A program made the position numbers and the translations under genes. This document shows positions 8,475 to 39,510 of a stretch of 58,875 nucleotides of DNA, piece by piece (position 1 is the first letter of the stretch; each line of letters begins with the position of its first letter). The notes under the pieces were generated by a model, which saw only the letters and a program-made list of their open reading frames with translations, had not been told where the DNA came from and ran no database searches. Source of the DNA: a virus; IMG/VR virus record IMGVR_UViG_3300044742_000342, positions 1 to 58,875 of that record; one strand, written 5' to 3'.

Positions 8475-8475
8475 T

Positions 8476-8868: not shown

Positions 8869-9593
8869 AGATCCTCCTAACAGGAGCCAGCTACGGGCTT
8901 GGAAAGCATCTGCGCGATGATTTCCTAAAAGCCGGGCACCGCGTAACGGGAATAGGGATTGAGGGACCAGATGTTGTGTGTGACTTTACCAATTTCTGCC
9001 AGCCAGGAAGGTCACAGGAAATTCTGAATGTAATCGCCGAGCGAGGTCCGTACGACATTGTGATCAACAATGCCGGCACTATGCGGCTGAGCTGGTTTAA
9101 GCACTACAAACAGCAGGACCTGATGGAAAGCCTGTATGTGAATCTGGTAGCACCCATCATGATCATGCAGCGGGTATACCTTGAGCAGATCTTTCTGTCC
9201 CCTCCATTTGGAGGCTTCTGGCGGTTCGTGAATATCACGTCTATGGCCGTCAAGCAGCCCGGCCGCGCCTGCGTGGGTTATAATGCCAGTAAGGCTGGGC
9301 TGGAATGTGCTGTACGAGGGCTGGCCCGCGAATTGGCTAACAATGCTTTTATTCTAAGCTCAGTGGCTCCGTGTATCATCGAAGGTACAGCTATGCAAGA
9401 ACGAGGTATGCTCCACCTCATAGGAGCTCGAGGGATGACGCCCACTGAGGCGGAAGCCTATCAAACCTCAAACCCCCTAGGGCGACGCGCTTCTCTGGAG
9501 GAGATAGCTCGAGTGGTAAAATTTGCGGCTTTTGAGTTGCCTCAGGCTATGTCCGGTACAACGCTCTATGTACCGGCAGCAACGGGAGTTTGA
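8865..9593 (+). CDS. Short-chain dehydrogenase/reductase (SDR)
   Basis: 242 residues from ATG 8865, overlapping the previous stop; GTG 8853 is a weaker alternative. LLTGASYGLGKHL is the TGxxxGxG NAD(P)-binding motif, INNAGT the NNAG motif, ITSM the catalytic Ser, and YNASKAG the YxxxK catalytic pair. All active-site residues of classical SDRs are present. SDRs are unusual in phages. Between DUF6378 and ThyX genes, reduction or oxidation in modified-nucleotide or folate chemistry is a guess. Confidence 0.9.
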   Translation: MKILLTGASYGLGKHLRDDFLKAGHRVTGIGIEGPDVVCDFTNFCQPGRSQEILNVIAERGPYDIVINNAGTMRLSWFKHYKQQDLMESLYVNLVAPIMIMQRVYLEQIFLSPPFGGFWRFVNITSMAVKQPGRACVGYNASKAGLECAVRGLARELANNAFILSSVAPCIIEGTAMQERGMLHLIGARGMTPTEAEAYQTSNPLGRRASLEEIARVVKFAAFELPQAMSGTTLYVPAATGV

Positions 9594-9594
9594 C

Positions 9595-9777
9595 ATGACG
9601 GACCGAGAAAAACTTCAGCTCGAGGACCTGCTCAAGATTGCCGAGGAGGATGACTCTCCGCTCAACGACTGGGAGAAAGAATTCCTTGAGGCGCTGGAGA
9701 GCAGGAGCCACTTCACGATGACCGAGAAACAGGCTAATGTTTTCGAGCGTCTAGTCGCCAAGCATTTAAAGGACTAA
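9595..9777 (+). CDS. Small acidic protein
   Basis: 60 residues starting MTDREKLQ. ATG 9595 was chosen over an upstream frame that overlaps the SDR gene. Acidic and helical, with the C-terminal segment EKQANVFERLVAKHL. It sits directly between SDR and ThyX genes with 1-bp spacing. No family recognised. Confidence 0.6.
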   Translation: MTDREKLQLEDLLKIAEEDDSPLNDWEKEFLEALESRSHFTMTEKQANVFERLVAKHLKD

Positions 9778-9778
9778 C

Positions 9779-10897
9779 ATGAGTCATAAAACAACAGTGC
9801 GGTTATTGAGCTGGACAGCCAATCCGATCGAGACCATTTACGCTGAGTGGGTACAGAGTCGAACCCAGGAACCTGTACCTAATCCCAGTGAATTACATCT
9901 GAAGATTGCTCACGAGAAAATGGACCAAAAAATCGCCGGAGTACCACCCGAGTTGGAGGCAAAAATTCTGGACGTATTCGAGAAGGTTGTGGCAATGAAG
10001 ATGCCGCTCGGTGAGTCCATCAGTTTCGTATTCCTCCTAGAGCATGTCCCTGTCGCCCTCCGCGAACAGCTGGTTCGCCATCGAATAGGGCATAAGTTCG
10101 GCGACCGGCTGGGGGCAGATATCATCCCCGATCTTGCTGGCGGAAGCTCGTTCTGGAGCCAGACCACCCGGATCGTGGACATGGGTACTTTTGCTACCGA
10201 CGGGGAGTACCTGACGCCGACATGGCTAGAGGAAAACGGACATGCAGATATGCCAGGATACACCAAAAAGGACGGTCAAGTTGTACCCGATGGTGAATCT
10301 CGTATAGGCTTTGCTGGTAACAGACCGGGAACAATTCAAGAGTTCTACGACAAGCAGATGCTCTGGATCCAAGCAGCCTATCGCCGATTAGTAAAGGCGG
10401 GGATGCCGCTAGAGGATGCCCGGAATATCTTGCCCGTTGCTATGATGCATCGCATGACCTGGACGACCAATCTGCAAGCACTTATGCATGTGCTTTCCAG
10501 AAGATCCTGCTGGCTCGCTCAACTGGGAATGTGGGAGCCTGTCGTGCATGGCATCGTAGAGGAACTGGCAAATCGAATTCATCCTACATTCCGGCGATTG
10601 ATTGATCCGCCTTGCATCAGTGCGGACGGCAATTTTCAAGCCTGCGCCTTCGTGAAGGAGAACGAGGAGATCGCTGGGAATGCAGCAGGGATAGGCAGGG
10701 GCGAATACCCGCCCTGCTCCCTTTGGGTCAATAGGGAGTTTCTACCCAAACATACCCTTCATGCTGGACTGCTGCCTAACCCGGAAAAAGCTGTTGCGGG
10801 TACTGGAAGAGTCCCCCGCTACGAGAAGATGATGACCAAGTACGAGAAGCTATGGGCGCGTGACCCCCGAACAGGGGAGAGAAAGGTGGTGGCATAA
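9779..10897 (+). CDS. thyX: FAD-dependent thymidylate synthase (ThyX-like)
   Basis: 372 residues. QLVRHRIGHKFGDRLG carries the RHR start of the ThyX motif, and GGSSFWSQTTRIVDM supplies the serine/arginine part after an insertion. ARNILPVAMMHRMTW and LSRRSCWLAQLGMW match the downstream aRxxLP and R...AQ helices. It is longer than typical ThyX (about 220-300). It would make dTMP from dUMP with methylene-THF and FAD. The insertion in the signature loop leaves room for a variant pyrimidine reaction. Confidence 0.75.
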   Translation: MSHKTTVRLLSWTANPIETIYAEWVQSRTQEPVPNPSELHLKIAHEKMDQKIAGVPPELEAKILDVFEKVVAMKMPLGESISFVFLLEHVPVALREQLVRHRIGHKFGDRLGADIIPDLAGGSSFWSQTTRIVDMGTFATDGEYLTPTWLEENGHADMPGYTKKDGQVVPDGESRIGFAGNRPGTIQEFYDKQMLWIQAAYRRLVKAGMPLEDARNILPVAMMHRMTWTTNLQALMHVLSRRSCWLAQLGMWEPVVHGIVEELANRIHPTFRRLIDPPCISADGNFQACAFVKENEEIAGNAAGIGRGEYPPCSLWVNREFLPKHTLHAGLLPNPEKAVAGTGRVPRYEKMMTKYEKLWARDPRTGERKVVA

Positions 10898-18693: not shown

Positions 18694-20277
18694 TCACTCC
18701 GGCATGCTCCACTTCAGGATTGCCGTCTTGCGCAGAATGTAGAAACCGCTGTGGACGATCGAGGTATAGTCTCCGGTGCCCCCACTCGCGGTAAGCGGGT
18801 CCGCCGGTTGGACGAAATTAGGAACGCCGAGCACCACCTCGCCAATCTTCTCCGTCCCGATCGTCTCCCCGTCCGATTCCAGTGATAGCGAGTCGAGCAG
18901 TCCCCACGCGCGGAAGTTTAGCCCAGTCGCGTTAGGGTCAAAGTCATTTACAACGCGGTCTGGCCAGTCAGCCGCCATGTCCTCGTCCGGGTCGTCCACG
19001 TCCACAACTCCCCACCCGTAAAAGTCTGCAGTTGCCGAGAGGAGAGTCGGGTATCCGCTGATTTTGACGTAAGAGTACGCGCCATCGCCGCTCAGCGGCC
19101 CGACGGAGCCGTTGTCGTCGGAGAGCAGTCCTCCGCTCGCCGCCCCGCTGATAATGCTCTGGTATGGAATCTGATTATCAACCGCGACGATGACGGGGAG
19201 TGGAGGATATTCGCCCGTGATGTAGGTCATCGCAGCAGACCACGCATCGTCGTAAGTCGCGTTAGCCTGGCCCGGTCCCCAAAACTCCCCAATGTTCGTC
19301 GCGTTGCGGCTGCCCGCAGCTACGTTGTTTTCGCCCTTATTTGTCCAGGTAAAGCCTGCTAGCGTCCATTGCAGCTCATCAATGGCGGCGTTGATTTGCT
19401 CAAAGATCCACGCCCCAAGGTAGTCGTCTTTCATGAACCTGCCGTAGCGCTTCACCACGCTGGGCTGGATGTTCTTTTTGTCGGCGGGGAATTCGCTGCC
19501 CGTGCGCACGTCGATCCCGTCAGATACAGCCCATTCACCATCCAGGTTGGCGTATACCTCGCCAAAGTGCTGGTCGATAATCGACCAGGTTGAACCATCC
19601 ACGACATTCTCCGCCGGTTCAAACCAGATAGAGGTGTCGTCGCTGTGGGTGACGGTTACTTCGAGAGGCTCGCCTCCGCCCGGTGGGGTAATGGTAATCG
19701 TTCGCCCCCGCCACTTGTTCAGCTCGTGCAGAGGTTCGCGGATGCGGTAGTCACAACTCGCAGCGCTGAAAGGCATCGCTAAATCCCAGCCGATCGTCGC
19801 GCCTGTGTGACTCGTGATCGGCCGCTTGTGCCAGATTGGCGGATCGGAGTCCGGTTCGAGCACTTCGACCATGTGACCGAGCCATCGTCCGCGCTCCGGA
19901 TGGGTCCAGAAGCTGCTGGCAGCTTTACTGCTGTCGGTTAGACTCAAGCTGCTTCCTCCACTGGCGACACCGGTGTGGGTGATGAGCACTCCGCCCCAGA
20001 AGTCCTGGCCGGTGTCGATCAGATAGCCGTTGCCGCCTGAAGTAACCGTTCCTGAGATGTCCACGCCCTGCGGCCCCGTCAGGCTTAAGCCGTCGGGATC
20101 GTGGCCGGTCCAGAAGACGTCGGCGTCACCGATCAGCGTTGGGTCGTTGTGGTTGTCCCCAATCAGACGCGCCAGTCCCGCGACGGCACCACCGTCTAGT
20201 AGCAGGAGGGTGAGCTGCTCCGACGTTAGATCAGAAAGGTGATCAAGGCTTAGTGATCGTAGGGCAAGTGGGATCAT
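18694..20277 (-). CDS. Tail-associated protein of unknown function
   Basis: 527 residues, last but one gene of the late operon. Rich in Trp, Asp and Gly, predicted beta. Contains LTDSSKAASSFWTHPERGRW, a TDS-K-W-RW pattern also present in the neighbouring upstream gene product, so the two proteins share a repeated beta module. It overlaps that gene by ATGA and precedes the spike gene by 18 bp. A role in the distal tail or fibre network is inferred from position. Confidence 0.6.
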   Translation of the reverse strand: MIPLALRSLSLDHLSDLTSEQLTLLLLDGGAVAGLARLIGDNHNDPTLIGDADVFWTGHDPDGLSLTGPQGVDISGTVTSGGNGYLIDTGQDFWGGVLITHTGVASGGSSLSLTDSSKAASSFWTHPERGRWLGHMVEVLEPDSDPPIWHKRPITSHTGATIGWDLAMPFSAASCDYRIREPLHELNKWRGRTITITPPGGGEPLEVTVTHSDDTSIWFEPAENVVDGSTWSIIDQHFGEVYANLDGEWAVSDGIDVRTGSEFPADKKNIQPSVVKRYGRFMKDDYLGAWIFEQINAAIDELQWTLAGFTWTNKGENNVAAGSRNATNIGEFWGPGQANATYDDAWSAAMTYITGEYPPLPVIVAVDNQIPYQSIISGAASGGLLSDDNGSVGPLSGDGAYSYVKISGYPTLLSATADFYGWGVVDVDDPDEDMAADWPDRVVNDFDPNATGLNFRAWGLLDSLSLESDGETIGTEKIGEVVLGVPNFVQPADPLTASGGTGDYTSIVHSGFYILRKTAILKWSMPE

Positions 20278-21848
20278 GGCTCAATGCTAATTGCATCCGG
20301 CCCATCGGAGTTGGGACTGAACGGACTAGGACGGTGCCCGCGACGGTCGTACTCGGCATAGCGCGTGCTCTTGGGGCGCGTGCTCCAGTTGCCAGTGCGA
20401 TTGTTGTCCTCTTCGTCGTCCTCCTCGGGGATCAGCGGCGCATCATCGTTGGCCCGAGTCCAACAGGTCTTGTCATACATGTAACGAAATCGCCGTGGAA
20501 TGTACCGAGTCCAACCCGGCGACAAAATGCCGGAAGGAGATCCGCCATCGAAATACCAATCGTCGTCTCCGTTTACACCCACCAGATGGCCATCTTCGGT
20601 GAGTTCTGTGGTGCCAGATGTCAGCAGCACGTTATCATGGCTGAAGATTGCGTAATCGACCGGGACGGTGAAGCCGTTGCCGGTGCCTAGCAGGATCACG
20701 CTGGTTTCGATTTCCTCATCCTCTTCGGCAGTCACGCCGAAAGTGTGTGAGTTGATGCCAGCGGCCTGCCAGCCCTCTGCCTTCACCATTGTGCGGATGT
20801 CCCCTTCGTAAGCTTCGTACGAGCGCATGTACACGAAATTCACGACGAAGCCTTCGGTGCCGATCTGCGCGCCACGCGGCGACTTATACAACTTCGGGTT
20901 GTAGGATTTGTCGGGCGGAAGTGGCGGATCATCCAAATCGGCGTCGATGTCTGTCCAGAGATCGTTATCGAACAATTGAACAGGATCTTCCCCCAGAGCC
21001 AGAACGGTATCTTCCACGGGAGAAAGTGTTCCGCCCAACGAGTGGTCAGGAAGGTGCGTCTCCACAAACTCAGGCTCGCTACGTGACCACACCCACATCG
21101 GATGATTCGGCCCTGGATGCCAAAGGGCACCGCTGGCCACGATGTTGAATTCCGTATCTATTCCAGGCTCGGGGGATGCAAGCGGGATGAATAGGCGAGT
21201 GGCGTCGCTGTCTGCGATTGCAACTCGAACAAGCTCGCCGCTGGACGTGTAGAGTAAGTCAAAGCCAATCCATGCGCCGTCCGACCAATCCGTAGAGCCG
21301 CGCCGACTGCCGGCATCCGTAATAATCCGGTAGGTCGCGTCCGTGTCCAGGGCTTCCACGGTGCCACTAAAGCGAGAATGGCGCGGCCAAATCGGAATGC
21401 GCTCATGCCACCAAAGCCCGTCGTAGCCAAAGCCCGAGCCGCCAGTAGTGGACTTGGAAATGATGTAATAGTGTTTGCCGACCAAATCGGAGGCGCTGTC
21501 GATGTGTCCAAACGTAATCCACTGCGCAATTACGCCAATGGTGAGCGTGTCGCTGGTGTTGGCGCTGATCCCTAGATGAACGAATTGGTACGGGTCGTCG
21601 TTGCTGCCGCTCAAATCTACGATAACGTCATAGAAAGCGGGTCCACCGCCGCTCCAGTCGCTCCATCTGTTCGCTTCCCAGGTCTTTATGCTGTCTGTCA
21701 GCGTCGTGGCGGTCGCTGCGGTAATCGTCCCGGTGTCCCACTGATGCGACGTGCGCGGCCAGCGCGCTTCGTTGTTGACCGCCTGGTTGCGGTACCAGAG
21801 CCGTCGGCAGATCGCAAAAAGATTCTCCCACTTCCAGTCGAACGCCAT
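20274..21848 (-). CDS. Tail-associated protein of unknown function
   Basis: 524 residues, good ribosome site (GGAGATTAGCC). The N-terminus has TLTDSIKTWEANRWSDW, the same TDS-K-W-RW pattern as in the downstream gene. The rest is beta-rich with many Trp and Asp. No catalytic motif seen. Position after the distal tail genes suggests a baseplate or fibre part. Confidence 0.6.
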   Translation of the reverse strand: MAFDWKWENLFAICRRLWYRNQAVNNEARWPRTSHQWDTGTITAATATTLTDSIKTWEANRWSDWSGGGPAFYDVIVDLSGSNDDPYQFVHLGISANTSDTLTIGVIAQWITFGHIDSASDLVGKHYYIISKSTTGGSGFGYDGLWWHERIPIWPRHSRFSGTVEALDTDATYRIITDAGSRRGSTDWSDGAWIGFDLLYTSSGELVRVAIADSDATRLFIPLASPEPGIDTEFNIVASGALWHPGPNHPMWVWSRSEPEFVETHLPDHSLGGTLSPVEDTVLALGEDPVQLFDNDLWTDIDADLDDPPLPPDKSYNPKLYKSPRGAQIGTEGFVVNFVYMRSYEAYEGDIRTMVKAEGWQAAGINSHTFGVTAEEDEEIETSVILLGTGNGFTVPVDYAIFSHDNVLLTSGTTELTEDGHLVGVNGDDDWYFDGGSPSGILSPGWTRYIPRRFRYMYDKTCWTRANDDAPLIPEEDDEEDNNRTGNWSTRPKSTRYAEYDRRGHRPSPFSPNSDGPDAISIEP

Positions 21849-21850
21849 GG

Positions 21851-22417
21851 CTAATCTCCTTCCCCCAGCAGGGAGCTGGCCTGGGGCATGTCCCAGGCAG
21901 CGACGTTGTCGGCGACCATCATGTGCACCTGACCTTGCCGGGTACCACGAGACTCGAAGCCTCCACCTAGTCCTAGTACTATCAGCTTGTTGTTAACGTT
22001 GCGATCAACAACCTTTCCGCCTACAATAGCACCAGCCTCCAGAGAGCTCTCCCCAGTCGCGATATCCGGAATAAACCATATAATCAGATCTTCTACTTCA
22101 GAAAGCACTCCCAGATTCGCCTCGATCAAGTCGCCAGTCGCGTCCAGGTTAGGTACACCACTAAATGACTTAGCATTATATCGGCCTGCCTGTCCAGAAA
22201 CCTGGCTGGTTACCTTGCCAAAAACGAGAACCTGACGCTTCCCTATCTCTGGGGATAGTGCAACACTCGTACCGCCGTCTGGCGATGTTGTAACAATGAC
22301 TTGGCCGTCTCCTATCATTGGAGTCAGCTGACGAAGCCGTGCAGAATGGCTAGTTAAAGCGCCTGCTGAGGCTTTCTTGCCTGGTGTGAAATTACCAAAG
22401 TCGTGTCCTTGAATCAT
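21851..22417 (-). CDS. Probable baseplate or tail protein
   Basis: 188 residues, predicted beta-rich (GDGQVIVTTSPDGGTSVALS; LDATGDLIEANLGVLSEVED). It sits in a coupled pair with the preceding 275-residue gene (TAATG overlap). No family recognised. Order after the tape measure fits a distal-tail or baseplate component. Confidence 0.5.
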   Translation of the reverse strand: MIQGHDFGNFTPGKKASAGALTSHSARLRQLTPMIGDGQVIVTTSPDGGTSVALSPEIGKRQVLVFGKVTSQVSGQAGRYNAKSFSGVPNLDATGDLIEANLGVLSEVEDLIIWFIPDIATGESSLEAGAIVGGKVVDRNVNNKLIVLGLGGGFESRGTRQGQVHMMVADNVAAWDMPQASSLLGEGD

Positions 22418-23244
22418 TAGGTGCCTACTCCAAAAACGGTTGCAAAGTTCTGCATTTCATACAAACCCACAGCTACAAAGCCGTTCGAAGTGATCATGGA
22501 CGTTGTATATGCTGTGTTCACCGCAGCCTGAACGAGTGCCGGATTAATATCGCGAGGTGGGCGTCCGGTTTCGTCAATAAAGAAGGCGTAGCTTTTCCAA
22601 TCCCGATGAACTTTGCTGATGAACGACGCCGACACCTTTATTTTGCTAGGTTCGCCAGAACTCGCCTCAGCTCCTACACCCGCGCAAAGCCAGTAACCCA
22701 CCGGCTTGCTGAACCATGTGGCATTGTTCACAGCCCCCACCGCGTTTAGGACCGTCTCACTCGGTCGCACAGAGAGCGTGGCCTGAAGGACGAGTGATCT
22801 CATCGGCTCAAACTTGTTGAATCGCGGATAATCAACAATTGTATTAGTAGCACTCGGCGGTAGATAGTTCACATCAATGGGTATGCCACTAACGTCTAGC
22901 TGCGTTTGTTCTTGTGTCAGTGATGTCTCGTCCCTAACATACCAGCTTGTCTGCGGGAAGAAATCAAATTCCAACGCAAGTGTCTCGTACTTCACACGGA
23001 CAATGGCTGTGTCCCAGAACTGCCCATAGATAGACCGACCAGTCACGATCAGATCGGGATGACTAACATCATATGCTTCTCCCATTATAGGCATGCCAGC
23101 GTCTTCAAGGAGTGCAATGAGTGTTGCCCTAGGGACCGTTCTGTCAAGACCCTGAGCCAATGCACCACGTACTACCGCCAGGTTATTGCGACCTTGCTCA
23201 ATGATCGCGTCGCGAGGACGTTCCCATTTGAACGTTGCAGGCAT
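22417..23244 (-). CDS. Probable distal tail protein
   Basis: 275 residues, AGGAGAGG upstream. First gene after the tape measure, the usual place for distal-tail proteins. Predicted mixed beta with a long central beta region (YETLALEFDFFPQTSWYVRD). Assignment rests on gene order, not on a motif. Confidence 0.5.
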   Translation of the reverse strand: MPATFKWERPRDAIIEQGRNNLAVVRGALAQGLDRTVPRATLIALLEDAGMPIMGEAYDVSHPDLIVTGRSIYGQFWDTAIVRVKYETLALEFDFFPQTSWYVRDETSLTQEQTQLDVSGIPIDVNYLPPSATNTIVDYPRFNKFEPMRSLVLQATLSVRPSETVLNAVGAVNNATWFSKPVGYWLCAGVGAEASSGEPSKIKVSASFISKVHRDWKSYAFFIDETGRPPRDINPALVQAAVNTAYTTSMITSNGFVAVGLYEMQNFATVFGVGT

Positions 23245-23252
23245 AGCCTCTC

Positions 23253-26090
23253 CTAGTTAGCCAAACCGCCAAACTCCTTGTCCACGATCCGCTGAAGCAG
23301 TCCTTCAATTGTTTTAACAGCTGTTGCAATATCCTGCTGGCCATTGGCTTCCACACCAAAGGCCATGTTAGGAGCGTTACCTTCCACTGCCCGATACCGA
23401 TCGAAGATCTGTTGCTTCTCGAACTGCAGGGCGAGTCTCAAATTCATACGGGCATCGGCTGCTTCCTCCGGCCTGTCGCTGCGCATCAGATCCCTAATCG
23501 TTTGTTCACCCTGCCCAGCTAAAGCTGTAGCTGAAGCAGCCAAAGGACTGCGACCGAGTAAGAACTCCAGCCCTGTTCGTTGATAGGACAATCGGGACTT
23601 GATATCTTGCGTAGTGTCACCGAACTGCTGCTGAGTCAGCGCCTCGATCGTATCAAACATGTCCTGAGTCTCGACAACCTGCTGCGCGTGAGACGGACCC
23701 AGGGGTATAGCATTCAATGCCAACTTCCTCTGAGTTTTTACACGAGCAAGCTGAGCGCCAAGGCTATCTCTGGAGAGCAACAGTCGATTTGCTTCGGTTT
23801 GACCTGTTATCTCCAGAGATTGCTGCCCTCGTTCGAAGGCTGTATTGGCATTGAATTCAGCCATTCGTGCCTCGGCGACTTTCGTGATGTTGTCCATTGC
23901 GTCCTTGTCCCCGACATGCTGGGCCATTTGGACAGCGGCATCGGCCAGGATTTGTGCCCTACCAGCCTCCTCGAATCTCCGCTGGGCGCGGAATCCCGAA
24001 ACAATAACCTGGCCACCAGCGTCGAGATCCTGGACATGCTGTTGACGTGTCAGTGAGTACTCAAGCTGCTGTCGTTCCTTGACCTGAGCTGCTTGGACCT
24101 GCGGCAGATTTTGGGGAGCATTTCTAATCACATCTCGGAGCTCGATGTCCTGCGTGTCTTGTAGGGACTGTCTCGCTAAGTCCTTGGGTGATCCGAAAAT
24201 AAGAGCAGCCGCCCGTAGGCCATAGCCGAACACAATGTCGTCGTTGTCTTTCACTCTCTCAGCCCGTTCAAACTGTCTTTGTCGCTCAACCTCGGCAATC
24301 TGTGCGTTGATGGATGTCATTCGGTTCCGCATTGCAACTTGAGCACCTTCGTCGCTGATCACAGGGACTCTAGCATTATAGCCTTGATAGTCTGTGAACT
24401 GCTCCCAATAAGTCTGTGGACGACTTACAGCTAGACTTGTTCCTAATCCGCCTCTCTCCTCAATCAACTTACGGACCTGTTCAGCAGCAGCAGCGTCTGC
24501 TCTGATGTCGGTAACTGCCATTCGTCCTAGAGGTGTAGCAGTTCTTATTGCGTCAGCTAGTTTAACCGATCTATAAGCATCGCTGGTCGCCATCTGGTTG
24601 GTGATTCGAACTTCCTGCATTCTGGATAAATCACGGACTGAAGACGGTCCAACACCAAATGCGTCCAAAGCCATGCCAAATGGCTGGCTGAACACACCGC
24701 CGAACAATTGATCAACTCCCTGCGATGTGACGTGGAGTCGTTCTAGGTCAGACCCTGCTAAAGCACTGTCAATTTCCATTCGTCGAGCGATTTGCTGTGC
24801 TCTGCCTGCTTCCCATAAAGCAAAGACAATTGAGTAGTAGTACGCACGACTTAAACCGCCCATACTACGTCTACCTCTGGCATTTGGACCGTCTGAGCTA
24901 AGATCAACAGTCCTTAGTCCTGGTAAACCACCACCTCCCTGAAATCCAAGCAAAGGTGGACCCCCACCGCCGCCCGATCCACCGCCGCCTGGAGGACCCT
25001 CCAGCAACCCACCCCCTGGTCGAGAAGATATGAATTCTCCTTCGAAGTCGCCCGTCACTGGATTATAACCGCCCCCACCCGGCAGAAATCGTGGGCCACC
25101 ACCCGGCAGAATTGGAATGTATCCCCCAAATCCTCCTCCAGCGCCTCCGCCTCCAGTATATGCTCCGCTGCCACCCCCAGTTGCCGAAACAATACCCGTT
25201 AATCGGGCTAGAGCAGTTCCGAGGTTATCAGCCTCTTGCTGAACCGCGCCGAAATCGACATCCCTACCCCTACCAGTACGAGCTAAATCCATAGAGTTGG
25301 AGTAGCCCTGTGGGAAGCTGGGTCTTATCTGCTCAGGATGCAAATTCATGTACGACGAACCAGGACCTTCGACTGTGTTATCGTATACAAGAGCATCATA
25401 TCCGCTGGACACCAGCTCTTGCCTGATCCTATCCCACCCCCTTTTCTCTGACACACCTGAAAACCACCCAGAGCCCAAACTCTCATCACCTATATCAGAT
25501 AGGTCTTTACCCTTGTGAGGTTTAACACCCTTTATAATCCGATTAAATTGAGTTCCAGATATTGCACCAGTTTCTAGTAGTTGCCTCGCGACCGCACCCC
25601 ACCAGTTTTCGCCTGTGTCTTCAATTCTCGCAGCTTTGTTATACGAGAACTCCACGGGATAGATTCTCATACGACTGCCCCATTGAAAGTCGTCCTCAGA
25701 GCCTATATCCCCATAGTTCTTTTCTAGACCGCTTGCTTGAATAGGTGTGCCGAAATGACTGAATGGCCGCCATTCAGCAATATCTTTTCTTGATCTCGTT
25801 CCATGGAATAACTGAACTCGATTTGCATATCCGACAGCAGGAGGACCGGGCAAATAAATTACCGGTCTAGAGTCCTTAGGACCATACGAATCGTAACCGT
25901 CATCACCAACCGGTCTACTCTCCCCCGGCGCAGGCAAAACTGCCCGAGCCATGGGACCGCCGATCTGCGCACGTCCTTCCATAGAAAACGTCATACCCCC
26001 GGCGAGGTTGGCCTCTCTCCGGCGAGCTTCCTCGTCGAATACAGTCCAATCTCCGATCACCTTAATTACAAGTGGTTCTTCTTCAGGCAT
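23253..26090 (-). CDS. Tape-measure protein with ADP-ribosyltransferase-like N-terminal domain
   Basis: 945 residues, placed directly after the frameshifted tail chaperone, the fixed position of tape measures. Residues 300-400 are Gly-rich linkers; 400-945 are long helices and coiled coil (REQs, QARA patterns), as expected. Unusually, residues 90-260 read like an ADP-ribosyltransferase of the polyvalent-protein type: VQLFHGT (H96), FSYNKAARIED, SSGYDALVYDNTVEGPGSSY (E241), then LHPEQIRPSF. If active it would be delivered with the DNA or modify proteins in the tail. Tape-measure role is firm; the enzymatic role is inference. Confidence 0.8.
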   Translation of the reverse strand: MPEEEPLVIKVIGDWTVFDEEARRREANLAGGMTFSMEGRAQIGGPMARAVLPAPGESRPVGDDGYDSYGPKDSRPVIYLPGPPAVGYANRVQLFHGTRSRKDIAEWRPFSHFGTPIQASGLEKNYGDIGSEDDFQWGSRMRIYPVEFSYNKAARIEDTGENWWGAVARQLLETGAISGTQFNRIIKGVKPHKGKDLSDIGDESLGSGWFSGVSEKRGWDRIRQELVSSGYDALVYDNTVEGPGSSYMNLHPEQIRPSFPQGYSNSMDLARTGRGRDVDFGAVQQEADNLGTALARLTGIVSATGGGSGAYTGGGGAGGGFGGYIPILPGGGPRFLPGGGGYNPVTGDFEGEFISSRPGGGLLEGPPGGGGSGGGGGPPLLGFQGGGGLPGLRTVDLSSDGPNARGRRSMGGLSRAYYYSIVFALWEAGRAQQIARRMEIDSALAGSDLERLHVTSQGVDQLFGGVFSQPFGMALDAFGVGPSSVRDLSRMQEVRITNQMATSDAYRSVKLADAIRTATPLGRMAVTDIRADAAAAEQVRKLIEERGGLGTSLAVSRPQTYWEQFTDYQGYNARVPVISDEGAQVAMRNRMTSINAQIAEVERQRQFERAERVKDNDDIVFGYGLRAAALIFGSPKDLARQSLQDTQDIELRDVIRNAPQNLPQVQAAQVKERQQLEYSLTRQQHVQDLDAGGQVIVSGFRAQRRFEEAGRAQILADAAVQMAQHVGDKDAMDNITKVAEARMAEFNANTAFERGQQSLEITGQTEANRLLLSRDSLGAQLARVKTQRKLALNAIPLGPSHAQQVVETQDMFDTIEALTQQQFGDTTQDIKSRLSYQRTGLEFLLGRSPLAASATALAGQGEQTIRDLMRSDRPEEAADARMNLRLALQFEKQQIFDRYRAVEGNAPNMAFGVEANGQQDIATAVKTIEGLLQRIVDKEFGGLAN

Positions 26091-26840
26091 CGGGATCCAC
26101 TTTCTGGGGATAGAGGTGTGGGAAATTCATCTCAACAATTAACCGCGCATTGAGTTCGTCCAGTCTCAGCTGATTGTACGTGTCGTCCGTGGCATTCGAG
26201 TTCACTAAGCCGGCGATTTGATGGGCTGAACGGAGGCGGTACTCGAAGACCGGGACGGTCCACTTTCTCCACGTGCCAGATCCGTAGAGAGCTTCGACGG
26301 TGGCGATGTCTCTCGCCCAGTTTCTTGCGATTTGGGCGCATCGGTTGTCCCGGTAGATGTCAAAGGGTTTTCACCCCCGTTCTCAGACAGCTTAGACACA
26401 GGCGTTGGATCTCGCATTGAGTTCTCCACGAGATCGGCGATCGCCCACGCAATGCCGGCAGAACGACCTGCTCCGTTGATCTTCACGAGCTGCTGGATCT
26501 CCTCCAGAGAGAGGCTCGGCAGTTCAGGTCCTGGAGTGTTGTCGGGATTGCGTTTGAACGCCTTTGCAGTTGACAAACGGGTAGTCAGGATCCGCTTGAA
26601 ACCCTCGGGTGTGAGGACGAGTTTGCGCATCTCGTTAATGTCCGGAGGTATCGGAGGGTAGAACTGTTTGAACTCCGCCTTGCGCGTATCGTCCAGGTCT
26701 TTGATCGCTTCTTCAGTCCTTGCGGAGGCGATCTCATTCGACCATTGAATAAAATAATCCATGTCGCATCGTTCGACATGGAGTACTTTATCTCCAAGGA
26801 CCACGATAATAGGTGCTGCTGTTGCTTGCAGGAAAAACAT
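26083..26840 (-). CDS. Tail assembly chaperone, frameshifted long form (G-T type)
   Basis: A -1 shift at A_AAC_CCT (26370-26364) moves ribosomes from the 211-residue frame into a second frame open for 93 more codons, ending TGA at 26085-26083 inside the tape-measure start. The extension is clearly protein-like (FDIYRDNRCAQIARNWARDI; LRLDELNARLIVEM). Total 252 residues. Such paired products load the tape-measure protein for tail assembly, as with lambda G and GT. Heptamer, gene order and size all agree. Confidence 0.85.
26205..26840 (-). CDS. Tail assembly chaperone, short form (G type)
   Basis: 211 residues without frameshift. N-terminal beta then helical core (MDYFIQWSNEIASARTEEAI; FKRILTTRLSTAKAFKR). 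After residue 159 the product is Ser/Thr/Gly-rich and low in complexity, as expected when the conserved information lies in the other frame. AAAGGAG precedes ATG. Lies between the tail tube genes and the tape measure. Confidence 0.8.
   Translation of the reverse strand: MFFLQATAAPIIVVLGDKVLHVERCDMDYFIQWSNEIASARTEEAIKDLDDTRKAEFKQFYPPIPPDINEMRKLVLTPEGFKRILTTRLSTAKAFKRNPDNTPGPELPSLSLEEIQQLVKINGAGRSAGIAWAIADLVENSMRDPTPVSKLSENGGENPLTSTGTTDAPKSQETGRETSPPSKLSTDLARGESGPSRSSSTASVQPIKSPA
26364..26370 (-). other. Programmed -1 frameshift site AAACCCT
   Basis: Minus-strand heptamer A AAC CCT in the zero frame of the chaperone gene, a canonical X XXY YYZ slippery site. Both tRNAs can re-pair at their first two positions after slipping (AAC to AAA, CCT to CCC). 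The -1 frame has a stop eight nucleotides upstream of the heptamer (TGA, 26373-26371 region), which fixes the shift to this short interval. Confidence 0.8.
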
Positions 26841-26873: not shown

Positions 26874-27278
26874 TTACGGACCCGGCACAACGTCCCAGGT
26901 CACAGTATACGCTGCTTTGGAAATGAAGCGGCCACCTATCCGCATGTTTTGGTTCACCATACGATCGGCGGAAGCTTCAGTAAAATTGGCCTGTAGAGTG
27001 ATTGTACAGCCGACGCTATACGTTGCGACTACAGCGACGTTCTGAGGTGCAGGAATTAGTGGCCCGGAGATTGTGATCTCCTTCTTACCAATTCCTGTCA
27101 GTTCACCCACCAGCTGACTGCGGCCTGGTTCTTGATCCGCCGTACCTTCGATGGAAAACGTATCCGCGTTTGTCATTTCAGTGACTTCACGGATACGGAA
27201 CATGTCGAGTAGCGTCGCATATAGAACACCGGCAATGCTGAAATTGGCAGTGCCATCCTTGCCGTTAATGACTCCCAT
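26874..27278 (-). CDS. Major tail tube protein, copy 2
   Basis: 134 residues, beta-rich, AGGAGATTCCT upstream. Nearly the same protein as the preceding gene product over residues 20-115 (TFSIEGTADQEPGRSQLVGE; NRMIGGRF-like end), but the two ends differ. Position just before the tail chaperone fits the tail tube. DNA of the two copies differs at many third codon positions. Confidence 0.7.
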   Translation of the reverse strand: MGVINGKDGTANFSIAGVLYATLLDMFRIREVTEMTNADTFSIEGTADQEPGRSQLVGELTGIGKKEITISGPLIPAPQNVAVVATYSVGCTITLQANFTEASADRMVNQNMRIGGRFISKAAYTVTWDVVPGP

Positions 27279-27322: not shown

Positions 27323-27721
27323 CTATGGGGTCTTGTCCCAGGTTACTATATACGCCGCTTTAGAGATAAACCTGCCGCCGATGCGCATGTTCTGGTTAAC
27401 CATACGATCAGCACTGGCCTCAGTGAAATTGACATTCATAGTGATGAAGCAACCAGTACTGTATGTAGCCACGACAGCCACATTCTGCGGCGCAGGAATA
27501 AGGGGTCCGGAAATGGCGAGATCCTTCTTGCCGATGCCCGTCAGCTCTCCCACAAGCTGGCTTCTACCGGGTTCCTGATCAGCAGTACCTTCAATGGAAA
27601 AGGTATCGGCATTAGTCATCTCAGTAACCTCCCGGATACGGAACATATCCAGGAGTGTCCTCTGGGAAACAGTTGCGATTAAGAAGTCGGCTGTTCCGTC
27701 TCTGCCGTTGATCACTCCCAT
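27323..27721 (-). CDS. Major tail tube protein, copy 1
   Basis: 132 residues, paralogue of the next gene and read first. Shared central region, different residues near 10-20 and 90-97 (ATVSQRT against AGVLYAT; FITMNVN against TITLQAN). Two tube subunits, one possibly decorated or minor, would build the tail. AAGGATTTAAC precedes the start. Confidence 0.7.
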   Translation of the reverse strand: MGVINGRDGTADFLIATVSQRTLLDMFRIREVTEMTNADTFSIEGTADQEPGRSQLVGELTGIGKKDLAISGPLIPAPQNVAVVATYSTGCFITMNVNFTEASADRMVNQNMRIGGRFISKAAYIVTWDKTP

Positions 27722-27733
27722 GTTAAATCCTTT

Positions 27734-28180
27734 CTAACCATCGTAGCCGCCGCTTTCGCTACCGGCCACTGGGTCGTCTGCATTCCCCCTAAAGTAGTCG
27801 CGGGCGAGCCTAAGAAAATCGGATCTGATGTACCGATTTATCACTCTCCGAGCTGGCTCCCAGAAAGGCCGTGGGTCCATCTTGAAGGTCCCATTTTCAA
27901 GCCATATGCCGTGGGGAGCGATCTTGCTATCCTGATAGATAGTGAGATCGGCGACATTCTTAGCACGAGCTCGTACTCGGTATTTGATACTTCGCCAGAG
28001 CCTGCTGAACTCCCTACGGGGTGGTTCGCCGGGATCAGAACGGATTGTTAGCGTTCCAATGTGCTGAACCCGCACATTAATCGAATCACGTATCATAGCA
28101 ACGCCCCGCTTGCCGAGCTCGTTCAAGGCGAGCCTGATAGCACGTTTAGCCCTGCCAGATGCGTTGTCAGCGAATCCCAC
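27734..28180 (-). CDS. HK97 gp10-like neck or tail-completion protein
   Basis: 148 residues from GTG 28180 with AGGAG nine bases upstream. An N-terminal helix (AIRLALNELGKRGVAMIRDS) is followed by a basic beta part (LWRSIKYRVRARAKNVADLT) and FWEPARRVINRYI. This matches the layout of HK97 gp10-type head-tail joining proteins, and the position between capsid and tail tube agrees. Confidence 0.6.
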   Translation of the reverse strand: MGFADNASGRAKRAIRLALNELGKRGVAMIRDSINVRVQHIGTLTIRSDPGEPPRREFSRLWRSIKYRVRARAKNVADLTIYQDSKIAPHGIWLENGTFKMDPRPFWEPARRVINRYIRSDFLRLARDYFRGNADDPVAGSESGGYDG

Positions 28181-34428: not shown

Positions 34429-35814
34429 TTAGTTGCTCCTATACACAGCGACCGCCATTGCCGATGTTGTGACAAGTGTCATGCCGGCGATGTTATCTAC
34501 GTAACACACACCATACCTCATGGTGTCCATCCCATGGTCGTCCTTCTTAACAGGCTCTTCCTTCACCGGCTTGCCATCTTTGTCCTTAGGATACACATAT
34601 CCGTCAAACTCATCCTCTGTCCGATCTGGGAGACCGACAGCTTTAAGTGCCGTATCTTCCTCAACAAGAGAGTCTCGACAGATAAAGAGGGTCGGTCGCA
34701 CATGCTGTTCGTGACGTAGTCGGAGATTGACTGCTTCAATTCCCGGTGTAATTGCTTTATGCGCCGGAATCGTGAAGATGCCTTGTTCGTGGAGCGTAGC
34801 ACGATCTTCAGCGTCATGATCTGATATCGTCGCTTCGTAATTCTCCCCCTCGGAGTACCGACGTATCGTTTGAGCATGATCAGCCACCAGCCTTTTGGTG
34901 AAGTAGATCTGTCGGTACAAGAACATTACGTCGTCAGGACTAATCGCCCACCACTGACATACGAATGGGTTCTTATACCCGAAGTCAATCACCCGTATCC
35001 TGCGCCAGTTGGACTCAATCCTAGGACGCGGCACCATATGGACAAAGGGGTCCCAGCTTTCATATACCATACCCTCTGATGCCGCCCAGATACCTTTACG
35101 AAGGCGGAGGTACCTCGCCCCAGAAAGTCGCTCCAGCCGCCGCATGTATGCTGAGCCATTAGGCGTCATCGTGCCGTCGCGATTGAACAACACAGGGTTA
35201 TCCTCATGCCGGGATAAGAGCCGAGTCATCTTGTCTGTATTGGCTCTAGCATTCAGCCAGTGATTTGGCGAGCCAGGATTACAGTCCAGGATGATTTGCT
35301 GGTACGGCATACGACCATTGCGCAAGCGAGTTGTTAGGCTCTCGTGATCCTCTTCAGTGAGTTCAGTAGCCTCAAAGCCAGCAATGATATCGTACTCAGT
35401 AGACATAATCTTCGAGGCCTTGTCCATACCACCAATGACAAACTCGGAGCCATTAGGGTAGCGATAGGTCTGACGGAGATTTCTTTGAGGCCCACGGAGC
35501 ATGGGAGAGCCCTCGGGAATCACCTTGTCCTCGTAGGTCCAGAGAGCGGACTCTGTCATGCTCTCACGAGTTTTGCGGACGCCAAGCACACGGAGCCTCG
35601 AGTACTTCATACAACAGAAGTTGATCTTCTCCAGGATAGCCCGTGTCTTGCCAGTACCTGCTGGGCCATCCATCAGGATTTCCTCATCACGGCAACTCCA
35701 CAATGTCCGAGCTGCTCCGTAGGCGCAGTAGGCTTTCTGCTTTACCGAATCATACTCCGGTGGAGCCACGCGCGGGCGCTTGCGAACATAAATGGGTGTG
35801 ATCTGCTGGATCAT
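34429..35814 (-). CDS. terL: Terminase large subunit
   Basis: 461 residues. MDGPAGTGKTRAILEK (about 49-64) is the Walker A of the packaging ATPase; the Walker B region is near YDIIAGFEATELTEE. RVIDFGYKNPFVCQWW supplies the first Asp of the RNase H-like nuclease and ISDHDAEDR a later acidic motif. It cuts and pumps DNA into the head through the portal encoded next. Overlaps the preceding gene by ATGA. Confidence 0.9.
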   Translation of the reverse strand: MIQQITPIYVRKRPRVAPPEYDSVKQKAYCAYGAARTLWSCRDEEILMDGPAGTGKTRAILEKINFCCMKYSRLRVLGVRKTRESMTESALWTYEDKVIPEGSPMLRGPQRNLRQTYRYPNGSEFVIGGMDKASKIMSTEYDIIAGFEATELTEEDHESLTTRLRNGRMPYQQIILDCNPGSPNHWLNARANTDKMTRLLSRHEDNPVLFNRDGTMTPNGSAYMRRLERLSGARYLRLRKGIWAASEGMVYESWDPFVHMVPRPRIESNWRRIRVIDFGYKNPFVCQWWAISPDDVMFLYRQIYFTKRLVADHAQTIRRYSEGENYEATISDHDAEDRATLHEQGIFTIPAHKAITPGIEAVNLRLRHEQHVRPTLFICRDSLVEEDTALKAVGLPDRTEDEFDGYVYPKDKDGKPVKEEPVKKDDHGMDTMRYGVCYVDNIAGMTLVTTSAMAVAVYRSN

Positions 35815-36176: not shown

Positions 36177-36901
36177 ACATCCTCCGTAATAACAGAGGCT
36201 GCGCCCACAACTAGATTTCCCCCAGAAGTTGCGTCGGCCACAGCCGGAAGGATTCGAACTCCAGCCCGGTACAGTCCCATTTCATCGTAGGTATTCTTCA
36301 GTAGCTTGCTGATTTTGTTGCCGGTGCGATCCTGGTCGGTCCAACCGCGTACATCGTACAAATCAGCGTAGGCAATGATCATTGCCCAGCGTTTCACCCT
36401 CGGCGGAACAACTCCTGCATTGGGTACAAAGCTGAGGGGGATGGAGTACATGCTGCCTCTGAACGACTCCTGAATTTCGCCGTATGCGTAGTCGAAGGCG
36501 TCTTGAACTGCATTCATGTCTGGGTTGGCATTCACATTCTGCTTGTTGGATGCTATGGCAATGTTCTTCAAACCCCATCGCCGAACAAACTCGTCCCAGG
36601 TGAAGTAGATTGACAATGGGATCGCCAGGACTCCGGTGACATTGAATTCACGACTCTGTGTCACCCCTAAGAAAGTCCAGCGGATCCAGTAGGTGTACGC
36701 AAGGGACGACACTGGTTCAACCAGTCCATACTGGTAAATTCCAGGACCGAGGTTAGGTAAAGGAGTACCAGCTGGTACCAGTACTTGATCAGTATCATTT
36801 CGCTTAATGCCAAATGTGTTGACTGGATCAGCGAACACGACTAAGTCGGCATTGATCATCCCGTCGTCATCTGTCTCATGTGTGAAGATAATATCGATCA
36901 T
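36173..36901 (-). CDS. Mu gp36-like (DUF1320) head-tail connector with N-terminal extension
   Basis: 242 residues. The C-terminal half (WDEFVRRWG; VQDAFDYAYGEIQESFRG; VKRWAMIIAYADLYDV) matches the helical fold of Mu gp36-like connectors. The N-terminal 100 residues are a beta domain not usually present. It is separated from the neck genes and read before the terminase, an unusual place. Overlaps the next and previous genes by a few bases. Confidence 0.55.
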   Translation of the reverse strand: MIDIIFTHETDDDGMINADLVVFADPVNTFGIKRNDTDQVLVPAGTPLPNLGPGIYQYGLVEPVSSLAYTYWIRWTFLGVTQSREFNVTGVLAIPLSIYFTWDEFVRRWGLKNIAIASNKQNVNANPDMNAVQDAFDYAYGEIQESFRGSMYSIPLSFVPNAGVVPPRVKRWAMIIAYADLYDVRGWTDQDRTGNKISKLLKNTYDEMGLYRAGVRILPAVADATSGGNLVVGAASVITEDV

Positions 36902-39510
36902 TAGTTAGTTACCCTCACGATCTGGGTTAGATTTCCGCGATCAGTAATAACATTGGTAATTCCCACGTCATTCTTGGATCCTACCCCTGCGCCTTTGACC
37001 GTGATGATTGTTCCGGAGAACACGCCATCGATTGTGATATCGGTTAGCTCCATAGAATAACGTCGAGTTCCGCCAGGCGGAATATATGTGACTGACCCAG
37101 TGAATGTCGCTGGTCCTGTCAGGAGGGAAGCTGACGCGATGAACTGTGGAGTGACTGTAACAACCGATCCGGCAAGCGTTGCGGTTCCCACAACGAAGTC
37201 GCCGAATGCATCGTAGATTGGAGCTGTGAATGTTACCGAGCCGCTGATCTGAACCGCTGAGCCGAGCACATTGACAGAGCCGAGAAACACGCCTGACGCA
37301 AAGATGGCTGATCCTGCAAGCTCAACAATACCGGCAGTTAATGAGCCTGACGCTGTGTAAGTAGGTGCCGTGAAGGCACTGCTTCCAGAGAGTGCCGTGG
37401 CAGCAACGACTAGAGTTCCTACTCCGGTATAGGTAGGTAACGTGAACGAGGCGCTGATAGATGTCGTGGATGCGGCAACAATTAGATTTCCGGAAGCCGC
37501 AAATTCAGGACCTCCAAATGACACCAACCCAGCCAAGCCTGCTGTACCCACCACAAGACTGGCCGACCCTGTATACACGGGCGCTGTAAATGACGCCGAC
37601 CCAGTCAGCTGAGAAACTGGTGCAACAATAGCGGCCTCTGCCACATTGAAGGCCGAGAATGTAGCATTTCCAGAGTAAGTTGCAGCGGCGATTGTCATCG
37701 CCCCTGAAGCCGTATAAACAGGTGATGTGAAAGTAGCAGAACCAGCAAGAACCGTAACCGGCGAGATCAGTGAGGCTGTTCCCGTGTAGCTAGGTGCCGT
37801 AAAGACCGCAGAACCTGATAATGCAACAGGAGACGCCACCAGGCTACCAGAGGCTGTAAACGCGTCGAAAAATGTTCCTGTCACGGTAGTCGTAACCGGT
37901 CCGACCACGAGGGCAGCTGACCCCGTGTATATTGGGGCAGTAAAGGCGGCTGAAGAAGCAAGAACTGTCGGCGATATTAACAAAGCTGCTGACGCTGTGT
38001 AGGTTGGTACAGTGAAGATTGCCGTACCAGCAAGCGATGTCGTACCGGCGAGTAGAGCACCTGAAGCTGTGTAGATCGGCGAAGTAAATACTGCGGTTGA
38101 CGCGGAAGTTGTCGGTGCGATTAACAGACTTGCTGTGCCGGAATAGATCGGAGCCGTGAATGTCGCTGTGGAAGCGGACGTTGCCGGCGCGATCGACAGA
38201 GCGGCCGTCGCGGAATACACCGGCGCGGTGAACGTGGCGGTGCCTGCTGATGTGGCAGGCGCAACCGCAAGTGCTCCACTGGCCGTATAGATCGGCGCGG
38301 TGAATGTTGCTGTCGATTCTGATGTGGCCGGTGCGGCAGCCAGCGCTGCGCTGGCCGTGTAGGTCGGCGCGGTGAACGTCGCGGTGCCGCTGAAGGTTGT
38401 CGGCGCCACCGAAAGCGCGGCCGATGCGACAGTGACGTCCTGGAGTGCGAAGATTCCCCACTCGCCCAGCGTGAATGTTCCCCACTCCGCCAGGGTGAAC
38501 ATCGCCCAGTTCAGCTGCGTGACCAGCTCAGCCGTTCCCGCTGCGGTCGCCGGTCCGATCGATACCGCGATGGCTCCGCTGTAGACCGGCGCGGTGAATG
38601 TCGCTGTCGATTCTGATGTGGCCGGTGCGGCAGCGAGTGCTCCGCTGGCGGTATAGACCGGGGCGGTGAAGGTGCCGGTGAGCGATGACGTGGCCGGTGC
38701 TGCTGATACTGCGCCGGTGGCGCTGTAGGTCGGCACGGTGAACGTTGCCGTAACCGACGTTGTCGCAGGTCCTGTCGAGCTGGCGATCGAGCCGGTGAAC
38801 GGCACCACGCCCTGCACCACCCACTTGCACGCGCCGGTTTCCGCGGCTGAGATCGTCCCGGTCATGCGCAGGGTGGCCGTCGCTCCGGTGGTGACCAACC
38901 GGTGGCCCAGGTCACCGGACATATCATCGCCGGTGGTCGAGCTGAAATGCGTCGCCGGGGATTCGACGTAGTTGCCGTTCCAGGTGATGGCGCCCGCTGA
39001 ATCGTCAATGCCCGACGTCGGCCGGGTCATGGTGGCCGAGTCGTCGCGAATGCCGATGAGCCCGATCACCACACCACCCGAAGGGACTGCAACCGTGCTG
39101 CTGGCCGAGACAGTCTGGCTGCTGGTGGTCCAGTTGGTCATCGCGGCGGTGACCGTCAGCGGCGTGGTCCAGTTGTCGCTCGCCGCCTTCTGCCAGAGCA
39201 TGATGACGGCGTGGCCTTCAGTAGGATTCGCTGACCAATCGATCGTCGGCGCAGTATCCCCCGATTGCCAGTCCCGATACCAGGCCATCACCTTGACCGA
39301 GCCCGTGCCGTTGCCGGTGGCCACGGCGCCGTCGGTGAACTCCGTTCCGATGGGGATCCAGTCGCTGGGGTCGAGGACGGTGACGGAGAAGGTCTTCCAG
39401 GTGGCGAACAGGAACATACGGTCACCGGCAGCCGGTGAGCCGGGAATGGCGACCGTCCCGTCTACGACAAGTCGCGCCCAGGTCCCTGCGGTTTTGAGGC
39501 TGATGGCCAT
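36901..39510 (-). CDS. Giant repeat protein, probable fibre or adhesin
   Basis: 869 residues. The N-terminal 230 residues form a lectin-like beta unit (MAISLKTAGTWARLVVDG). The rest is about 25 tandem units of 23-27 residues built on ATFTAPxYTASGALxxAP. Near 330 a short WxxFTLxEWGxF duplication interrupts the array. Repeats in the first-translated half are near-identical and GC-rich; those near the C-terminus are diverged and AT-richer. Beta-repeat stalks of this sort present receptor-binding domains. No enzyme motif. Confidence 0.6.
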   Translation of the reverse strand: MAISLKTAGTWARLVVDGTVAIPGSPAAGDRMFLFATWKTFSVTVLDPSDWIPIGTEFTDGAVATGNGTGSVKVMAWYRDWQSGDTAPTIDWSANPTEGHAVIMLWQKAASDNWTTPLTVTAAMTNWTTSSQTVSASSTVAVPSGGVVIGLIGIRDDSATMTRPTSGIDDSAGAITWNGNYVESPATHFSSTTGDDMSGDLGHRLVTTGATATLRMTGTISAAETGACKWVVQGVVPFTGSIASSTGPATTSVTATFTVPTYSATGAVSAAPATSSLTGTFTAPVYTASGALAAAPATSESTATFTAPVYSGAIAVSIGPATAAGTAELVTQLNWAMFTLAEWGTFTLGEWGIFALQDVTVASAALSVAPTTFSGTATFTAPTYTASAALAAAPATSESTATFTAPIYTASGALAVAPATSAGTATFTAPVYSATAALSIAPATSASTATFTAPIYSGTASLLIAPTTSASTAVFTSPIYTASGALLAGTTSLAGTAIFTVPTYTASAALLISPTVLASSAAFTAPIYTGSAALVVGPVTTTVTGTFFDAFTASGSLVASPVALSGSAVFTAPSYTGTASLISPVTVLAGSATFTSPVYTASGAMTIAAATYSGNATFSAFNVAEAAIVAPVSQLTGSASFTAPVYTGSASLVVGTAGLAGLVSFGGPEFAASGNLIVAASTTSISASFTLPTYTGVGTLVVAATALSGSSAFTAPTYTASGSLTAGIVELAGSAIFASGVFLGSVNVLGSAVQISGSVTFTAPIYDAFGDFVVGTATLAGSVVTVTPQFIASASLLTGPATFTGSVTYIPPGGTRRYSMELTDITIDGVFSGTIITVKGAGVGSKNDVGITNVITDRGNLTQIVRVTN

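What the first reader, a model, noticed from the sequence alone, without database searches (positions are those of the whole stretch)
25310..25810. ADP-ribosyltransferase-like domain at the front of the tape-measure protein
Residues 90-260 carry FHGT (H96), a mid strand FSYNKAARIED, GYDALVYDN, a Glu in NTVEGPGSSY, and HPEQIRPSF, the order of ART domains known from polyvalent and MuF-type phage proteins. Here it is joined to a tape measure, which is ejected during infection. A tail-delivered ADP-ribosyltransferase could modify host targets at once. Family resemblance is from memory; catalysis is inference.
Basis: partly seen in the sequence, partly recalled or inferred. Interest (0 to 1): 0.68.

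Follow-up and report, generated by a model that had tools for sequence, protein, structure and literature searches.

The report
ADP-ribosyltransferase inserted in phage tape-measure protein
An uncultured tailed phage carries an enzyme-type domain of the ADP-ribosyltransferase kind, with its signature residues intact, inserted into the protein that most likely sets tail length and leaves the virion during infection, whereas its closest relative has nearly the same protein without the insert, so the tail itself may deliver an enzyme into the bacterium.

Summary
The 945-residue ORF 23253-26090(-) contains, at residues ~90-265, a divergent relative of Pfam ART-PolyVal (PF18760). It scores below the Pfam cutoff itself. 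A profile of relatives chosen by a different motif scores it 60.7 bits (best of 1000 shuffles 5.4). In 47 relatives not selected for them, H96, Y236, N238 and E241 are invariant. The AlphaFold model (pLDDT 81) matches viral ART-PolyVal proteins and, more weakly, AcrIF11 and PARPs.

New: the domain is an insertion. The nearest relative phage (capsid 56% identical, tail-tube candidate 62%) has the same gene in the same place, 756 residues long. It keeps the first ~47 residues, the Gly-rich linker and the body (640 versus 642 residues) but lacks ~187 residues, including the whole ART domain.

'Tape measure' rests on gene order, helix-rich composition and conserved body length; no family model calls it so, and my tail-tube fold test failed. 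Most likely this is a virion-borne effector that ADP-ribosylates a host target after ejection; catalysis, target and delivery are inferred. I found no report of an ART in a tape measure, though ARTs on other virion proteins and peptidoglycan hydrolases in tape measures are known. New variant of a known kind.

The parts
23253..26090 (-). 945-aa protein: short N-terminal segment + ART-like domain + Gly-rich linker + helix-rich body; probable tail tape-measure protein
   Evidence: ORF; position after neck and two tail-tube-like genes; homologue in the same place in a relative phage
25950..26090 (-). residues 1-47, shared with the relative that lacks the ART
   Evidence: 50% identity to residues 6-51 of the L118 protein
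25296..25823 (-). ADP-ribosyltransferase-like domain, residues ~90-265, absent from the relative
   Evidence: profile tests; AlphaFold model pLDDT 81.3, pTM 0.77; Foldseek
25803..25805 (-). codon of H96 (strand 1, FHGT)
   Evidence: 46 of 46 relatives not selected for it
25755..25757 (-). codon of H112 (strand 2, HFGT)
   Evidence: invariant in the relatives of alignment A4, not selected for it
25377..25385 (-). codons of Y236 to N238 (YDN)
   Evidence: Y236 47/47 and N238 47/47
25368..25370 (-). codon of E241 (EGPGSSY), candidate catalytic acid
   Evidence: 47/47 in relatives not selected for it
24861..25193 (-). Gly-rich linker, residues ~300-410, also present in the relative
23256..24860 (-). 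helix-rich body, residues 411-945, probable ruler part
   Evidence: homologous to residues 239-756 of the L118 protein, z=8.1; 642 versus 640 aa counted from residue 304/117
26205..26840 (-). 211-aa gene in the place of the tail-assembly chaperone
   Evidence: homologue at the same place in the relative, E=1e-15
26874..27278 (-). tail-tube-like protein, copy 2
   Evidence: 62% identity to the single copy in the relative
27323..27721 (-). tail-tube-like protein, copy 1 (86% identical to copy 2)
   Evidence: weak profile match to a protein that hits phrog_1407 'major tail protein'
27734..28180 (-). neck / tail-completion protein
   Evidence: phrog_5, E=3.3e-10

Best explanation
A tailed phage, probably a siphovirus, carries an ART-PolyVal-like ADP-ribosyltransferase domain inserted near the N-terminus of its tape-measure protein, between a conserved ~47-residue start and a Gly-rich flexible linker. 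The ruler part kept its length, so assembly was not disturbed. On infection the tape measure leaves through the tube ahead of the DNA (general knowledge of siphophages). The tethered domain then folds or refolds in the host and uses NAD+, bound by H96 and neighbours and activated by E241, to transfer ADP-ribose to a host protein, or possibly to a defence component as AcrIF11 does, before any phage gene is expressed. Shown here: the domain, its family, its conserved residues and its presence/absence as an insert. Inferred: tape-measure identity, ejection, catalysis, target.
For: Family and fold. Signature residues intact. Insertion: relative IMGVR_UViG_3300037119_004955, bridged by contig 3300037071_006095, is syntenic from the g36173 gene through terminase, capsid, neck and tail tube to the next tail genes, and its protein lacks residues ~48-303 apart from a short unrelated stretch. 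The ART part is lower in G+C (0.468) than the other parts of the gene (0.52-0.57). Tape-measure position: neck phrog_5, two tail-tube-like genes, a chaperone-position gene, then this gene; it is the only large helix-rich ORF of the tail module. Precedents: virion-borne ARTs fused to MuF or portal proteins (PMC9503650); peptidoglycan-hydrolase motif in a tape measure (PMC1796659).
Against: No family library recognises the protein as a tape measure. The tail-tube structure prediction failed (pLDDT 36). Two more distant relatives with a downstream-gene homologue have no such large gene upstream of it. Several copies of a ~20-kDa globular domain may not fit folded in a tail lumen. Asp before Ser-Tyr, the commonest residue at that place in relatives, is Ser here (S245). 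Only one lineage (two identical contigs) carries the fusion, so selection for activity could not be measured.
Confidence: 0.6

Rival explanations
1. The domain is an ART used inside the producing cell: it modifies phage or host proteins late in infection or during tail assembly, and its place in the tape measure is only a fusion of convenience.
For: The domain lies in a late structural gene; ADP-ribosylation by phage ARTs also occurs after entry (T4 ModA and ModB, PMC9503650). The Variovorax relative is free-standing on a plasmid, so the family exists without a delivery part.
Against: Fusion to a structural rod ties the enzyme to virion stoichiometry and place, which has no evident use for an intracellular enzyme; family members in phages are mostly in large proteins thought to be virion-borne (PMC5512222).
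Confidence: 0.12
2. The ART fold is kept as a non-catalytic structural or binding module, for instance at the head-tail joint or tail tip.
For: Fits the steric problem in the tube; the S245 change from the usual Asp; Pfam score below cutoff.
Against: H96, H112, Y236, N238 and E241 are all retained in an otherwise diverged domain (21-34% identity); the relative builds its protein without it.
Confidence: 0.12
3. The carrier is not a tape measure but another internal or ejected virion protein, and the ART is an effector of that protein.
For: No tape-measure model matches. The first Foldseek hit in PDB is a chain of the cyanophage A4 pre-ejectosome (E=2e-5), though TM-score is low and the proteins of Anabaena phage A-4L show no sequence match.
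Against: Gene order neck, tail tube, chaperone position, this gene, further tail genes; body length 642 versus 640 aa in the relative.
Confidence: 0.16

Closest known systems
ART-PolyVal (Pfam PF18760), the ART of polyvalent proteins of phages and conjugative elements (PMC5512222)
   Same: Same order of motifs (YHGT, HFGT..QA, I.PV.L...PLRL.D.G.W, GYD.IVY.N..EG.G.SY, P.QI), same predicted fold, same invariant H and E
   Different: Carrier is a tape-measure-position protein with no other recognised effector domain; sequence too diverged for the Pfam cutoff; S245 for the usual Asp; Iyer et al. describe H-Y-D whereas strand 2 here is HF
T4 Alt and MuF-ART or portal-ART fusions (PMC9503650)
   Same: ART carried on a virion protein and thought to act at once on entry
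   Different: Head-packaged and of Alt/VIP2 or N4 type; here the carrier belongs to the tail module
Tape measures with peptidoglycan hydrolase motifs, such as mycobacteriophage TM4 (PMC1796659)
   Same: Enzymatic module inside a tape measure, dispensable for viability in TM4
   Different: Those act on the cell wall; an ART would act on cytoplasmic macromolecules with NAD+
AcrIF11 (PMC12421852; PDB 6KYF)
   Same: Phage ART of the diphtheria/PARP side; Foldseek E=4.8e-3, prob 0.91; an acidic residue in a conserved loop is essential
   Different: Small free protein; key residues described as H-F-H-D; known target Csy1 (Cas8f)
Variovorax sp. RA8 plasmid protein WP_162590077.1
   Same: Closest sequence relative found outside the phage lineage, 29% over 91%, E=4e-8
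   Different: Free-standing 151-aa protein

Membership tests
ART-PolyVal (PF18760) | Scores above the curated Pfam cutoff | tested here: not met
   No PF18760 hit at E<=1 for the protein or the domain nor for the identical contig; relatives found by motif do hit
ART-PolyVal (PF18760) | Homology to members in a profile built from them | tested here: met
   57.5 and 60.7 bits with two separately selected profiles, shuffles <=5.4
ART-PolyVal (PF18760) | Conserved strand-1 His and C-terminal acidic residue | tested here: met
   H96 46/46, E241 47/47
ART-PolyVal (PF18760) | ART fold | tested here: met
   Model pLDDT 81, pTM 0.77; BFVD hits named ART-PolyVal, prob 1.00; TM-scores moderate (0.4-0.6)
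ART-PolyVal (PF18760) | NAD-dependent ADP-ribosyl transfer | not testable with these tools
   needs a biochemical assay
Tox-ART-HYD2 active site (PMC5512222) | H in strand 1, Y in strand 2, D in strand 5 | tested here: not met
   Strand 2 is H112-F113, H invariant and F nearly so in relatives; residue before Ser-Tyr is S245
Polyvalent protein | Two or more effector or enzyme domains in one large protein | tested here: not met
   Only the ART-like domain recognised
MuF-ART fusion | MuF domain | tested here: not met
   No Pfam or PHROG domain in the rest of the protein
Tail tape-measure protein | Match to a tape-measure family | tested here: inconclusive
   No Pfam or PHROG match for this protein or the relative's; tape measures diverge fast, so absence says little
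Tail tape-measure protein | Gene lies between tail tube/chaperone and distal tail genes | tested here: inconclusive
   Order fits and is conserved in the relative; tail-tube identity itself only weakly supported
Tail tape-measure protein | Long helix-rich body of constant length in related phages | tested here: met
   Body 642 versus 640 aa; helix-former residue fraction 0.54 in the last 430 residues
Tail tape-measure protein | Tail length scales with protein length; ejected on infection | not testable with these tools
   uncultured phage

The most novel reading that the evidence does not exclude
A tail-delivered effector: the tape measure of a tailed phage doubles as injector of a catalytically active ADP-ribosyltransferase that reaches the host ahead of the genome and acts on transcription machinery or a defence protein.
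Probability: 0.5. Interest if true: 0.72.

Novelty: new variant of a known kind. Interest (0 to 1): 0.56.

Why it matters
Virion-borne ARTs are known from heads. If a tape measure carries one, the tail tube is a second route for enzymatic effectors and the cargo arrives before the DNA. The pair of relatives with and without the domain is a natural comparison suggesting that the ruler tolerates cargo, which would make tape measures a class of proteins worth scanning for hidden effectors.

Tried and rejected
Whole-protein and domain searches of phage records gave nothing useful. A weak TrwC/TraI match of the middle part (E=0.0059 in Pfam, 0.79 in PDB) is below cutoff, covers only ~45-60 residues and is treated as chance. 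MuF fusion and polyvalent protein were rejected for lack of the other domains. AlphaFold of the tail-tube pair with three sequences gave pLDDT 36 and was not used for fold search. Most terminase relatives share little else with the window; only L036 was useful. Capsid relatives L122-L132 have no homologue of this protein. A profile search of Anabaena phage A-4L for the ART gave nothing, so the 9k3a hit is not built on. A profile that included the window itself (second table) was discarded in favour. The genome-contig scan, with the Variovorax protein, found only other Variovorax copies. Extra scans with the tail tube and with the relative's protein gave no further phage with the fusion.

Full report
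What was checked. The window is an IMG/VR virus record of 58,875 bases. The ORF at 23253-26090 on the minus strand encodes 945 residues and contains every motif quoted, at the stated place.

Is it an ART? Pfam and PHROGs give nothing convincing for the window protein. A translated search of plasmids finds a free-standing 151-aa protein of Variovorax sp. RA8, 29% identical over 91% of the domain, E=4e-8, which is a sub-cutoff relative of PF18760 ART-PolyVal (E=3.1e-5). A DNA motif scan of viral contigs for GYD[GA][IV][IV]Y.N..EG.G.[ST]Y gives 29 loci, nearly all translating to the same succession YHGT / G.HFGT..QA / I.PVYL.I.NPLRL.D.G.W / GYDGIVY.N..EG.GDSYIAF.PEQIKS. Several of them match PF18760 far above cutoff. 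A profile from them scores the window protein 57.5 bits, E=1.5e-16, with no other window ORF listed and no shuffle above 5.1 bits. Because those relatives were picked by the C-terminal motif, a second set was picked by G.HFGT.EQA only. Its profile, without the window and scored only on residues 120-270, gives 60.7 bits, E=1.1e-17, best of 1000 shuffles 5.4.

Active-site residues. In the second set, not selected for them, H96 is His in 46 of 46, Y236 in 47 of 47, N238 in 47 of 47, E241 in 47 of 47 and S246 in 46 of 47. In the first set, not selected for strand 2, H112 is invariant. The window keeps all of them. The position before Ser-Tyr, most often Asp, is Ser here. The literature gives H-Y-D for polyvalent ARTs (PMC5512222) and H-F-H-D for AcrIF11 with an essential Asp in a conserved loop (PMC12421852). 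E241 lies in what is probably the corresponding loop, but no structural superposition was made, so E241 as the catalytic acid is an inference.

Fold. AlphaFold2 with 17 sequences: pLDDT 81.3, pTM 0.77. Foldseek against viral models returns proteins named ART-PolyVal-like with probability 1.00, best E of any hit 3.4e-9. Against PDB: a chain of cyanophage A4 pre-ejectosome (E=2e-5), AcrIF11 6KYF (4.8e-3), then tankyrase/PARP, a RES toxin and other ARTs. TM-scores are moderate (0.3-0.6), so the fold call rests on the consistency of the hits and the sequence profiles.

The carrier. Gene order on the minus strand is terminase (34429-35814), Mu-like portal, S49 protease, decoration protein (HDPD), major capsid, connectors, neck (phrog_5), two tail-tube-like copies 86% identical, a 211-aa gene, the 945-aa protein, then further tail genes. 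It is the only large helix-rich ORF of the tail module. The tail-tube identity is weak: a profile comparison to a gene that hits phrog_1407 'major tail protein' gives E=0.0011 but only 20% probability, and the structure prediction failed. Tape measure is therefore likely, not proven.

The insertion. Terminase and capsid searches found a relative, IMGVR_UViG_3300037119_004955, whose contig ends split the module; contig 3300037071_006095 bridges it. Capsid 56%, portal 44%, tail-tube candidate 62%, neck 46% identical, same order. Its protein in the same place (756 aa, L118 14909-17176) shares residues 4-47 (50%) and the part from residue 304 on, including the Gly-rich linker and the YS..F.LWEAG stretch, but lacks the ART. 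From residue 304/117 on, the two are 642 and 640 residues long and align with z=11.8 over shuffles, although the last 440 residues alone reach only z=3.0. No PF18760 match exists elsewhere in that record, with the caution that the same search also misses the window's own diverged copy. So a ~187-residue segment is present in one and absent in the other, and its G+C is lower (0.468 versus 0.52-0.57). Gain in the window's lineage seems more likely than loss, but with one relative the direction is not proven.

How it may work. Tape measures leave through the tail tube before the DNA (general knowledge). A domain joined by a ~110-residue Gly-rich linker could sit outside the rod or pass unfolded; T7 gp16 refolds after passing a narrow channel (PMC8954989). 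Once inside it could ADP-ribosylate RNA polymerase, translation factors or a defence protein. Which target cannot be told from sequence.

Novelty. Searches of the paper library for tape measure together with ADP-ribosyltransferase gave no description of such a fusion; the papers looked at mention the two apart or describe MuF-VIP2 fusions, and the survey of viral NAD/ADPr systems does not use the term 'tape measure'. Subscription papers are not held. Enzymes in tape measures are known for cell-wall hydrolysis (PMC1796659). This is a new variant of a known kind.

Noticed in passing
26874-27278 and 27323-27721 (-): Two adjacent tail-tube-like genes 86% identical in protein; the relative has one copy. 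Recent tandem duplication, possibly with one copy specialised.
   Followed up: partly
18694-20277 and 20274-21848 (-); L118 10654-13626: Two window tail genes correspond to the two halves of a single 991-aa protein in the relative: a gene split or fusion.
   Followed up: no
36901-39510 (-): 869-aa protein made of many short repeats (TFTAPVYTASGALAAAPATS...), probably a repetitive beta-structured virion protein; a repeat protein in L051 resembles it.
   Followed up: no
7294-10897 (+): Nucleotide cluster: nucleoside 2-deoxyribosyltransferase (PF05014), YfbR-like 5'-deoxynucleotidase, short-chain dehydrogenase, ThyX; with UDG and an N6/N4 DNA methylase nearby this hints at modified or unusual nucleotides.
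   Followed up: partly
L011 712-5043 (-): Another ORF with an ART-PolyVal domain at its front, joined to a C-terminal zeta-toxin-like kinase and a weak second PARP-like stretch: a polyvalent protein.
   Followed up: partly
L001 / IMGVR_UViG_3300043579_000224: A second IMG/VR contig (36,595 bases) carries this protein at 100% identity, so the fusion is not an assembly accident of one record, though the two may come from the same sample.
   Followed up: partly
L149, L175, L159, L158: Some ART-PolyVal relatives have a long insert between the conserved Glu (N..E) and the SY strand, so the two elements can be far apart in sequence.
   Followed up: no
L038 13189-14394, L047 9851-11898: Phages with a homologue of window gene 22417-23244 directly after a major-tail-like gene or adaptor, with no large tape-measure-like gene between.
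   Followed up: no
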